64,000 bases of DNA from Haloarchaeobius amylolyticus (GTDB lineage Archaea; Halobacteriota; Halobacteria; Halobacteriales; Natrialbaceae). Under the pieces are notes generated by a model that saw nothing but the letters and a program-made list of their open reading frames with translations, was not told where the DNA came from and ran no database searches. This document shows, piece after piece, positions 5,331-40,160 of this stretch (its first letter is position 1; each line of letters starts with the position of its first letter). The translations under genes were made by a program, and so were the position numbers. The stretch covers positions 682,001 to 746,000 of the forward strand of contig NZ_JANHDH010000002.1 of the NCBI RefSeq assembly GCF_026616195.1. Reading direction: 5' to 3'.

Positions 5331-5580
5331 CTGGCGCGCGCCGACGAGCGTGCTGAGCACGAGGCGACTTGGTCGCCTCGCAATGCGAAGCCGCGAGTCG
5401 GTGCTGCGCGAGGGATGCGGAGCGCAATAGAGCGGAACGCAGTGAAGCGGAATGAGCACCGCAATCGGCTGGGGAGGGTGTGGTGCGGAGCGGTGCGGAG
5501 CGGTGCGGTGCGGTGCGGGTTTTCACCGCCATCGGCGCGAGTTCGATGCTCGTCGTCACCAGCAACCGGCTCGGGAAGCA
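5331..5580 (+). repeat. Dispersed intergenic element, copy 1
   Basis: This occupies most of the 395-bp gene-free gap between kdgA and the next membrane protein. It shares with 39898-40160 a 15-bp block 'CTGGCGCGCGCCGAC' (5331-5345), 'GCGCGAGGGATG' (5406-5417), 'GAACGCAGTGA' (5435-5445), a perfect 26-bp block (5463-5488) and 'CGTCGTCACCA' (5551-5561). Between the last two it has a GGTGC/GGAGC-rich stretch of short direct repeats (5481-5519). It has no plausible codon structure. Both copies lie in the same orientation downstream of a plus-strand enzyme gene and upstream of a plus-strand membrane protein gene. I see no terminal inverted repeat or target duplication, so mobility is not shown. Confidence 0.7.
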
Positions 5581-39897: not shown

Positions 39898-40160
39898 CTG
39901 GCGCGCGCCGACAGGATGCCGAACGCAGTGAGGCTCCTGTCAGACGCCGCGCGAGGGATGAGTACCGGAGCGGAGCAACGCGGAGCGAGGAACGGAATCG
40001 GCTGGGGAGGGTGTGGTGCGGGGTGGTTGCGGTGCGGTCGCGGTCATCGACGCCAGCGCGAGTCGTCTCGTCGTCGTCACCAAGCACACTCGCACTGCCA
40101 GTCACACCTCTCGTCGTCGTCACCAAGCACACTCGCACTGCCAGTCACACCTCTCGTCGT
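39898..40160 (+). repeat. Dispersed intergenic element, copy 2
   Basis: This fills most of the 383-bp gap after purH. It shares with 5331-5580 the 15-bp block (39898-39912), 'GAACGCAGTGA' (39921-39931), 'GCGCGAGGGATG' (39949-39960), the perfect 26-bp block (39996-40021) and 'CGTCGTCACCA' (40072-40082), though two of these blocks are in swapped order. It has no credible gene. The tail has expanded into a 43-bp tandem repeat. Both copies keep the same orientation and sit after a plus-strand gene. Confidence 0.7.
40066..40160 (+). repeat. 43-bp perfect tandem repeat (2.2 units)
   Basis: Two identical 43-bp units (40066-40108 and 40109-40151) plus a 9-bp partial third. Each unit begins 'TCTCGTCGTCGTCACC' and contains 'AAGCACACTCGCACTG'. 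The unit seems to derive from the tail of the dispersed element, which occurs once in copy 1. It lies about 90 bp before the next ATG (40250). Repeat number could vary between strains. Confidence 0.75.

What the first reader, a model, noticed from the sequence alone, without database searches (positions are those of the whole stretch)
5331..5580. Two matching non-coding elements 34 kb apart (copy 1 of 2)
The 395-bp gap after kdgA shares five exact blocks (11-26 bp) in similar spacing with 39898-40160, including a perfect 26-bp match (5463-5488 and 39996-40021). A 26-bp identity between unrelated intergenic sites is very unlikely by chance even at high GC. Both copies have the same orientation and sit after a plus-strand enzyme gene, before a membrane protein gene. 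Two of the blocks are in swapped order, suggesting recombination. I cannot name a known element. It could be a miniature mobile or REP-like repeat, a structured 3' region or an RNA.
Basis: seen in the sequence. Interest (0 to 1): 0.62.

Follow-up and report, generated by a model that had tools for sequence, protein, structure and literature searches.

The report
Haloarchaeal REP-like G·A-hairpin intergenic repeats
The two matching gaps are members of a large, apparently undescribed family of non-coding elements found between genes in about half of the salt-loving archaeal genera sampled; each has one conserved G-rich tag and rapidly changing hairpins whose fold is nevertheless kept, so they appear to be preserved because of the shape of one DNA (or RNA) strand.

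Summary
Window 5331-5541 and 39898-40062 are two of about 49 copies in this genome and 64 in a sister species; the strict pattern occurs in 143 of 391 Halobacteria genomes (44 of 86 genera), with no hit for the reversed control. Each copy is strand-specific: head CTGGCGCGYGC; hairpin A; GYGCGAGGGAYGA; hairpin B; RTCGGCTGGGGAGGNNGTGG; G-rich tail. Hairpin B follows a strict grammar: two-base-pair steps (or NNANN stems) separated by invariant GA/GA, GNA/GNA or GA/GNA blocks (probable sheared G·A pairs), with mostly C(GNA)G triloops. In one class 97% of cells pair, with changes on both sides at 8 of 9 pairs. About 28 copies keep their site between two sister species although hairpin B keeps almost no primary-sequence similarity; at radB in another genus the element is more conserved than the gene end beside it. 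This is selection on a folded single strand at fixed sites. I favour a REP-like DNA element that folds as ssDNA (loops match known stable DNA mini-hairpins; both gene orientations occur; no TATA peak); an RNA role is not excluded. No Y1 transposase was found in the genome, Rfam has no match, and I found no description. One copy sits at an inversion breakpoint.

The parts
5331..5338 (+). copy 1 head, CTGGCGCG (continues as CGC)
   Evidence: sequence; head TGGCGYG recurs in G000 copies and in most copies of other genera
5335..5406 (+). copy 1 hairpin A: CCGAC-GA-GCG-(bulged T)-GCT-GA-...-GA-AGC-CGC-GA-GTCGG
   Evidence: grammar fold; ViennaRNA z -3.2 with DNA and -4.3 with RNA parameters
5408..5414 (+). 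copy 1 constant linker GCGAGGG
5414..5466 (+). copy 1 hairpin B, from GAT to ATC
   Evidence: grammar fold; nearest-neighbour energy alone does not support it; the family covaries
5466..5483 (+). copy 1 invariant G-run motif CGGCTGGGGAGGGTGTGG
   Evidence: 40 perfect plus 9 one-mismatch sites in the genome; local G4Hunter score up to 1.56
5484..5519 (+). copy 1 variable G-rich tail (GCGGT/GCGGA units)
5528..5541 (+). copy 1 tail end GCCATCGGCGCGAG; repeats the GCGCG of the head
   Evidence: two tail-end types recur in G000 copies
39898..39905 (+). copy 2 head CTGGCGCG
39900..39950 (+). copy 2 hairpin A: GACAGGA-(bulged T)-GCC-GA-AC-GCA-GT-GA-GGC-TCCTGTC
   Evidence: grammar fold
39951..39957 (+). 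copy 2 constant linker GCGAGGG
39957..39999 (+). copy 2 hairpin B: GAT-GA-GTACC-GGA-GC-GGA-GC-AAC-GC-GGA-GC-GA-GGAAC-GGA-ATC
   Evidence: grammar fold
39999..40016 (+). copy 2 invariant G-run motif
   Evidence: G4Hunter 1.92 to 2.0
40052..40062 (+). copy 2 tail end GCCAGCGCGAG

Best explanation
A family of REP-like intergenic elements specific to Halobacteria. One strand carries the information. When single-stranded it folds into two adjacent hairpins (A and B) built from short Watson-Crick steps alternating with sheared-G·A blocks and capped by GNA triloops, followed by a conserved run of G tracts. SHOWN by computation: the family, its distribution, the strand-specific fold, the covariation, and conservation at fixed sites. 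INFERRED, about 55:45 over RNA: the folded molecule is DNA exposed as a single strand (replication, repair, R-loops). INFERRED, weaker: a chromosomal protein, or the DNA-processing machinery itself, recognises the hairpin pair plus the G-tract tag rather than the base sequence of the arms, which is why arms drift while fold and tag stay. Copies arose by copying between intergenic sites, are then mostly inherited vertically, and act incidentally as breakpoints for rearrangement.
For: Copy number and clade: 49 sites with at most one mismatch in G000 and 64 in G002; strict bipartite pattern in 143/391 genomes, reversed control 0 in all. Fold: 184 hairpin-B sequences score 19.5 against 2.0 for shuffles; 97% of cells paired, 90 both-side changes against 24 shuffled (0 of 500 shuffles reach it), slid controls 18-39%; G·T 18 versus A·C 1, so this strand is the one that folds. 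DNA-like loops: 153/184 loops are 3 nt, 116 of them GNA, and 130 of the 153 are closed by C-G; GNA and GNNA loops are the known extraordinarily stable DNA mini-hairpins (PMC4686876, PMC6479982). Selection: about 28 sites shared by G000 and G002 with hairpin-B interiors only 0.62 identical (random pairs 0.59) but motif 0.955, while 38/42 and 38/40 hairpins beat every shuffle; element after radB 96.5% identical against 91.5% for the gene end and 57% for the spacer. Against an RNA gene: no TATA-like peak before the head, both gene orientations used. In G000 and G002, 15 of 16 single changes in the motif avoid its Gs.
Against: No experiment or transcript data. Sheared G·A blocks also stabilise RNA, and 61% of copies lie downstream of a co-directional gene, which leaves a 3'-UTR or RNA role open. 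Some loops that RNA also uses occur (GCAA, GTGA, CTTG). Nearest-neighbour energies do not predict hairpin B of the two window copies better than shuffles. No binding protein or mobilising enzyme was identified. The G-tract motif scores below 1.2 in G4Hunter in most other genera (median 1.08).
Confidence: 0.5

Rival explanations
1. An RNA element: the folded strand is RNA, in 3'-UTRs or as a family of small RNAs, acting in 3'-end formation, mRNA stability or as a protein-binding RNA.
For: Strand-specific fold with G·T wobble tolerated; 100 of 163 copies follow a co-directional gene, with a short median gap of 52 bases; in Halosimplex and other genera the element continues into a third long hairpin GAAAGGGGC...GGGGGCTTTC, which looks like a large structured RNA.
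Against: 63 of 163 copies lie antisense to the gene upstream, and 27 lie between divergent genes; no TATA-like peak at the head; no UUCG loops and few GNRA tetraloops, instead C(GNA)G triloops; no Rfam match.
Confidence: 0.35
2. A non-autonomous mobile element (MITE or REPIN) mobilised by a single-strand transposase; hairpins are transposase recognition structures.
For: Dispersed, intergenic, head-to-head pairs (14 versus 6) like REPINs/BIMEs; a bulged T in many hairpin-A stems, as IS200/IS605 ends have (own knowledge); near-identical copies at different sites in Halosimplex and Natrinema.
Against: No Y1 transposase (PF01797) in G000 although the control found it in H. volcanii; vertical site conservation; 40 of 49 motif copies perfect while the arms differ widely; none in 2.9 million viral contigs; no clear target duplication seen.
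Confidence: 0.25
3. Hairpins are made by mutation alone (template-switch correction of quasi-palindromes) without selection.
For: Template switching can create compensatory changes in inverted repeats (own knowledge; no tool result supports it here).
Against: It would turn stems into perfect palindromes, but the GA blocks are conserved mismatches (47-48 of 48 sequences at every GA column), and the adjacent motif and the radB-locus copy are conserved.
Confidence: 0.03

Closest known systems
REP / BIME / REPIN elements of bacteria
   Same: Short intergenic palindromic repeats, tens to hundreds of copies, often in inverted pairs, oriented, near gene ends
   Different: Not the described REP tetranucleotide tags; about 165-210 bp with two hairpins plus a G-tract tag; arms diverge while the fold stays; no Y1/RAYT-type transposase in this genome; restricted to Halobacteria as far as searched
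IS200/IS605-derived MITEs
   Same: Strand-specific subterminal hairpins; many hairpin-A stems with a bulged T; scar-like junction at one lost copy
   Different: No PF01797 protein in the genome; no flanking autonomous element or conserved target tetranucleotide found; sites inherited vertically
DNA mini-hairpins d(GCGNAGC) and zipper-like sheared G·A motifs (chemistry)
   Same: C(GNA)G loops; GA and GNA blocks between two-base-pair steps
   Different: Known as oligonucleotide structures; I found no report of a natural, covarying family in haloarchaea
Large structured RNAs of bacteria and archaea (Rfam)
   Same: Multi-hairpin, covarying, intergenic; a third hairpin in some genera
   Different: No Rfam match; both gene orientations; no promoter signature; high copy number

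Membership tests
REP/BIME (broad sense) | many dispersed intergenic copies with hairpin potential | tested here: met
REP/BIME (broad sense) | inverted pairing of copies | tested here: inconclusive
   14 head-to-head and 6 tail-to-tail pairs among the loci held; most copies are single
REP/RAYT system | Y1 (HUH) transposase in the genome | tested here: not met
   PF01797 absent from G000, positive control in 5 of 14 genomes
MITE | terminal inverted repeats plus target-site duplication | tested here: inconclusive
   head TGGC and tail GCCA could pair; GCGCG is a direct repeat at both ends; flanks too diverged to read a duplication
MITE | recent insertions differing between relatives | tested here: inconclusive
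   about 28 of 45 G000 sites shared with G002; sites after the AICARFT gene and before the membrane gene are empty in four congeners
Structured RNA family | match to a curated covariance model | tested here: not met
Structured RNA family | transcribed from the folding strand | not testable with these tools
   no expression data
DNA GNA mini-hairpin | C(GNA)G triloop | tested here: met
   116 of 153 triloops are GNA; 130 of the 153 are closed by C-G
DNA GNA mini-hairpin | exceptional thermal stability as DNA | not testable with these tools
   literature on short oligonucleotides only (PMC4686876, PMC6479982)

The most novel reading that the evidence does not exclude
A clade-wide chromosomal DNA signal whose working form is single-stranded DNA: paired GA-zipper/GNA-loop hairpins next to a G-tract (possibly G-quadruplex, favoured by the molar K+ of haloarchaeal cytoplasm), read by shape rather than sequence by an unknown protein, for chromosome organisation, replication or recombination.
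Probability: 0.3. Interest if true: 0.85.

Novelty: new variant of a known kind. Interest (0 to 1): 0.7.

Why it matters
About half of the haloarchaeal genera sampled carry it, up to 64 sites in a genome examined closely, yet it matches no Rfam family and I found no description. It gives many natural examples of a fold (sheared G·A zipper with GNA loops) known mainly from oligonucleotide chemistry, with strong covariation as evidence of selection. Whether shape-read ssDNA signals exist in chromosomes, and what reads them, becomes testable. The elements also mark rearrangement breakpoints, which bears on haloarchaeal genome plasticity.

Tried and rejected
Rfam with gathering and E-value thresholds: nothing credible. 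Y1 transposase partner: absent in G000. Viral carriage: no exact match in IMG/VR. Origin-centred chromosomal signal: significant in G002 (KS p 6e-5 around the best Orc1/Cdc6 gene) but not replicated in three other genomes (p 0.54, 0.18, 0.05; combined 0.10), so not claimed. Chromosome-only rule: holds in G000 (49/49 sites), G002 (64/64) and Natrinema zhouii (29/29 on contig 1), but eight plasmids of other haloarchaea carry copies, so it is no general rule; exclusion from recently acquired DNA explains it as well. Strand bias with replication: none in G002 (27 of 64). Head-tail pairing as a closing stem: possible but invariant, so untestable. First gene caller was wrong and was replaced. In working notes I called the copy-2 upstream gene 'pyk'; Pfam shows it is formyl transferase/AICARFT.

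Full report
OBSERVATION. The 26-bp identity at 5463-5488 and 39996-40021 is exact. The block occurs only at these two places in the window, with 0 occurrences in 100 shuffles. The two gaps align over 159 bp at 70% identity, E 1e-17. A direct 43-bp tandem duplication at 40066-40151 lies behind copy 2 and is separate.

FAMILY. Searching the whole genome with copy 1 gives 51 places. The 18-nt motif CGGCTGGGGAGGNNGTGG has 40 perfect and 9 one-mismatch sites in G000 and 57 plus 7 in the sister species G002; two-mismatch sites (13 in each) are near control level. A strict bipartite pattern, GCGAGGGRYGA-N20..50-CGGCTGGGGAGG, is in 143 of 391 Halobacteria genomes and 44 of 86 genera, the reversed pattern in none. 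IMG/VR viral contigs: none. Some haloarchaeal plasmids of other genera carry copies without an annotated feature.

ANATOMY. In element orientation: head (C)TGGCGCGYGC; hairpin A (very variable arms, often with one bulged T, as GCG-T-GCT...AGC-CGC); GYGCGAGGG; hairpin B from GAY to RTC; the motif, whose first C closes hairpin B; a variable G-rich tail; in the window genus a tail end GCCAGCGCGAG or GCCATCGGCGCGAG. In Halosimplex and several other genera a third long hairpin GGACTGAAAGGGGC...GGGGGCTTTC follows.

FOLD. Hairpin B obeys a grammar. Example: GAT-GA-CT-GA-AC-GA-GC-GAA-GC-GA-GT-GA-GG-GA-ATC. Two-pair steps alternate with GA/GA blocks, or GNA/GNA (common in the window genus), or NNANN/NNANN stems flanked by GA/GNA. 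All 184 distinct hairpins: mean score 19.5 against 2.0 for shuffled interiors; 153 loops are 3 nt, 116 of them GNA; 130 of the 153 are closed by C-G. The scoring rewards GA blocks but not loop sequence, so the loop statistics are independent of it. In the 50-nt class (48 sequences) 403 of 432 cells are Watson-Crick, 18 G·T, 1 A·C, and GA columns are invariant or nearly so. The formal count on 36 of them: 96.9% paired, 8 of 9 pairs with both-side changes, covariation score 0.787 against 0.257 shuffled and at most 0.127 slid. These sequences come from many genera and paralogous sites, so relatedness is low but not zero. In G000 38 of 42 and in G002 38 of 40 hairpins beat all 20 shuffles. Ordinary nearest-neighbour folding supports hairpin A of copy 1 (z -3.2 DNA, -4.3 RNA) but not hairpin B of either window copy.

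SELECTION AT FIXED SITES. About 28 of 45 G000 elements with usable flanks have an element at the orthologous site and mostly in the same orientation in G002, with flanking genes mostly 81-93% identical. Not one hairpin B was identical, and the interiors are hardly more alike (0.62) than random pairs (0.59), while the motif is 0.955. Intergenic flanks are also strongly diverged (0.63-0.66 against 0.52-0.53), so the arms drift at about the intergenic rate while the fold is kept. In another genus, seven species share an element after a gene whose translation reads as RadB (own assignment): element 96.5% identical, gene end 91.5%, spacer 57%. Of 16 single changes in the motif of G000 and G002, 15 fall on its 5 non-G positions (p 3e-7), as expected if G tracts matter. 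Quadruplex formation is an inference; G4Hunter scores are above 1.2 in 87 of 88 copies of these two species but only in 47 of 156 copies elsewhere, and such scores are common in this GC-rich window.

CONTEXT. With a codon-model gene caller, elements are intergenic, more often after a co-directional gene (100 versus 63) and more often in convergent than divergent gaps (49 versus 27). No TATA-like peak precedes the head. Some copies form head-to-head pairs (14 versus 6 tail-to-tail).

REARRANGEMENT. Relative to G002, G000 carries an inverted segment of about 7 kb that ends in window copy 1: the kdgA-side alignment runs to 687564 and the membrane-gene side starts at 687330, so the overlap is the element. 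G002 has an element at both ends of that segment, in inverted orientation; in G000 the other junction has only CTGGCGCGAG, as if an element had been lost between its GCGCG ends (interpretation inferred). In four other congeners the aldo/keto-reductase and membrane genes are adjacent without an element, and the aldolase and AICARFT genes lack one, so these elements were gained after the genus diversified or lost in those species.

DNA OR RNA. For DNA: loop types match the known extraordinarily stable DNA mini-hairpins with GNA or GNNA loops (PMC4686876; PMC6479982); the tetraloops seen (GATA, GCCA, GAAT, GGAC, CCTG with G-C closure) resemble selected stable DNA tetraloop classes (own memory, not looked up); UUCG is absent. 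Both transcription orientations occur. For RNA: wobble tolerance, partial orientation bias, third hairpin. I put DNA at about 55-60%.

KNOWN KINDS. It works like a REP/BIME element in the broad sense. It is not a member of the REP/RAYT system, because the transposase is absent here. No Rfam family matches. Paper searches found no description; most subscription journals are not held, so prior description cannot be excluded. The RepRanger survey of REPs in bacteria and archaea lists no haloarchaeon in the text searched (PMC12306157).

VERDICT. A real, widespread, structurally selected element family; the function of the folded strand is open. Novelty: new variant of a known kind.

Noticed in passing
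window 40066-40151: Perfect 43-bp tandem duplication directly behind copy 2; G002 has a single copy of the unit at the orthologous place.
   Followed up: partly
L223-L226 (four congeners), 3' region of the AICARFT-type gene: One or more hairpins of the same GA grammar, the first overlapping the gene's stop codon (for example TTTAGACAC-GA-TT-GA-GC-GCCA-GC-GA-GT-GA-GTGTCTAAA), without the element's motif; tandem copies in some species.
   Followed up: no
L055, L112, L174, downstream of the element: The right end of the third hairpin (GCGACCGGGCGGGGGCTTTC or GCGAGCGGGGCGAGGGCTTTC) is repeated some 60-70 bp further on.
   Followed up: no
L241 12380-12440 (G000 C2 about 680380-680440): Scar-like CTGGCGCGAG at the other junction of the inversion, as if an element was lost between its GCGCG ends.
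   Followed up: partly
G000 C1:2058026 and G002 C1:462898: An element lies within about 300 bp of the best-scoring Orc1/Cdc6 gene match in both species; element density is highest around it in G002.
   Followed up: partly
L062-L073 (one genus of another family): Element after radB conserved better than the gene end itself.
   Followed up: yes
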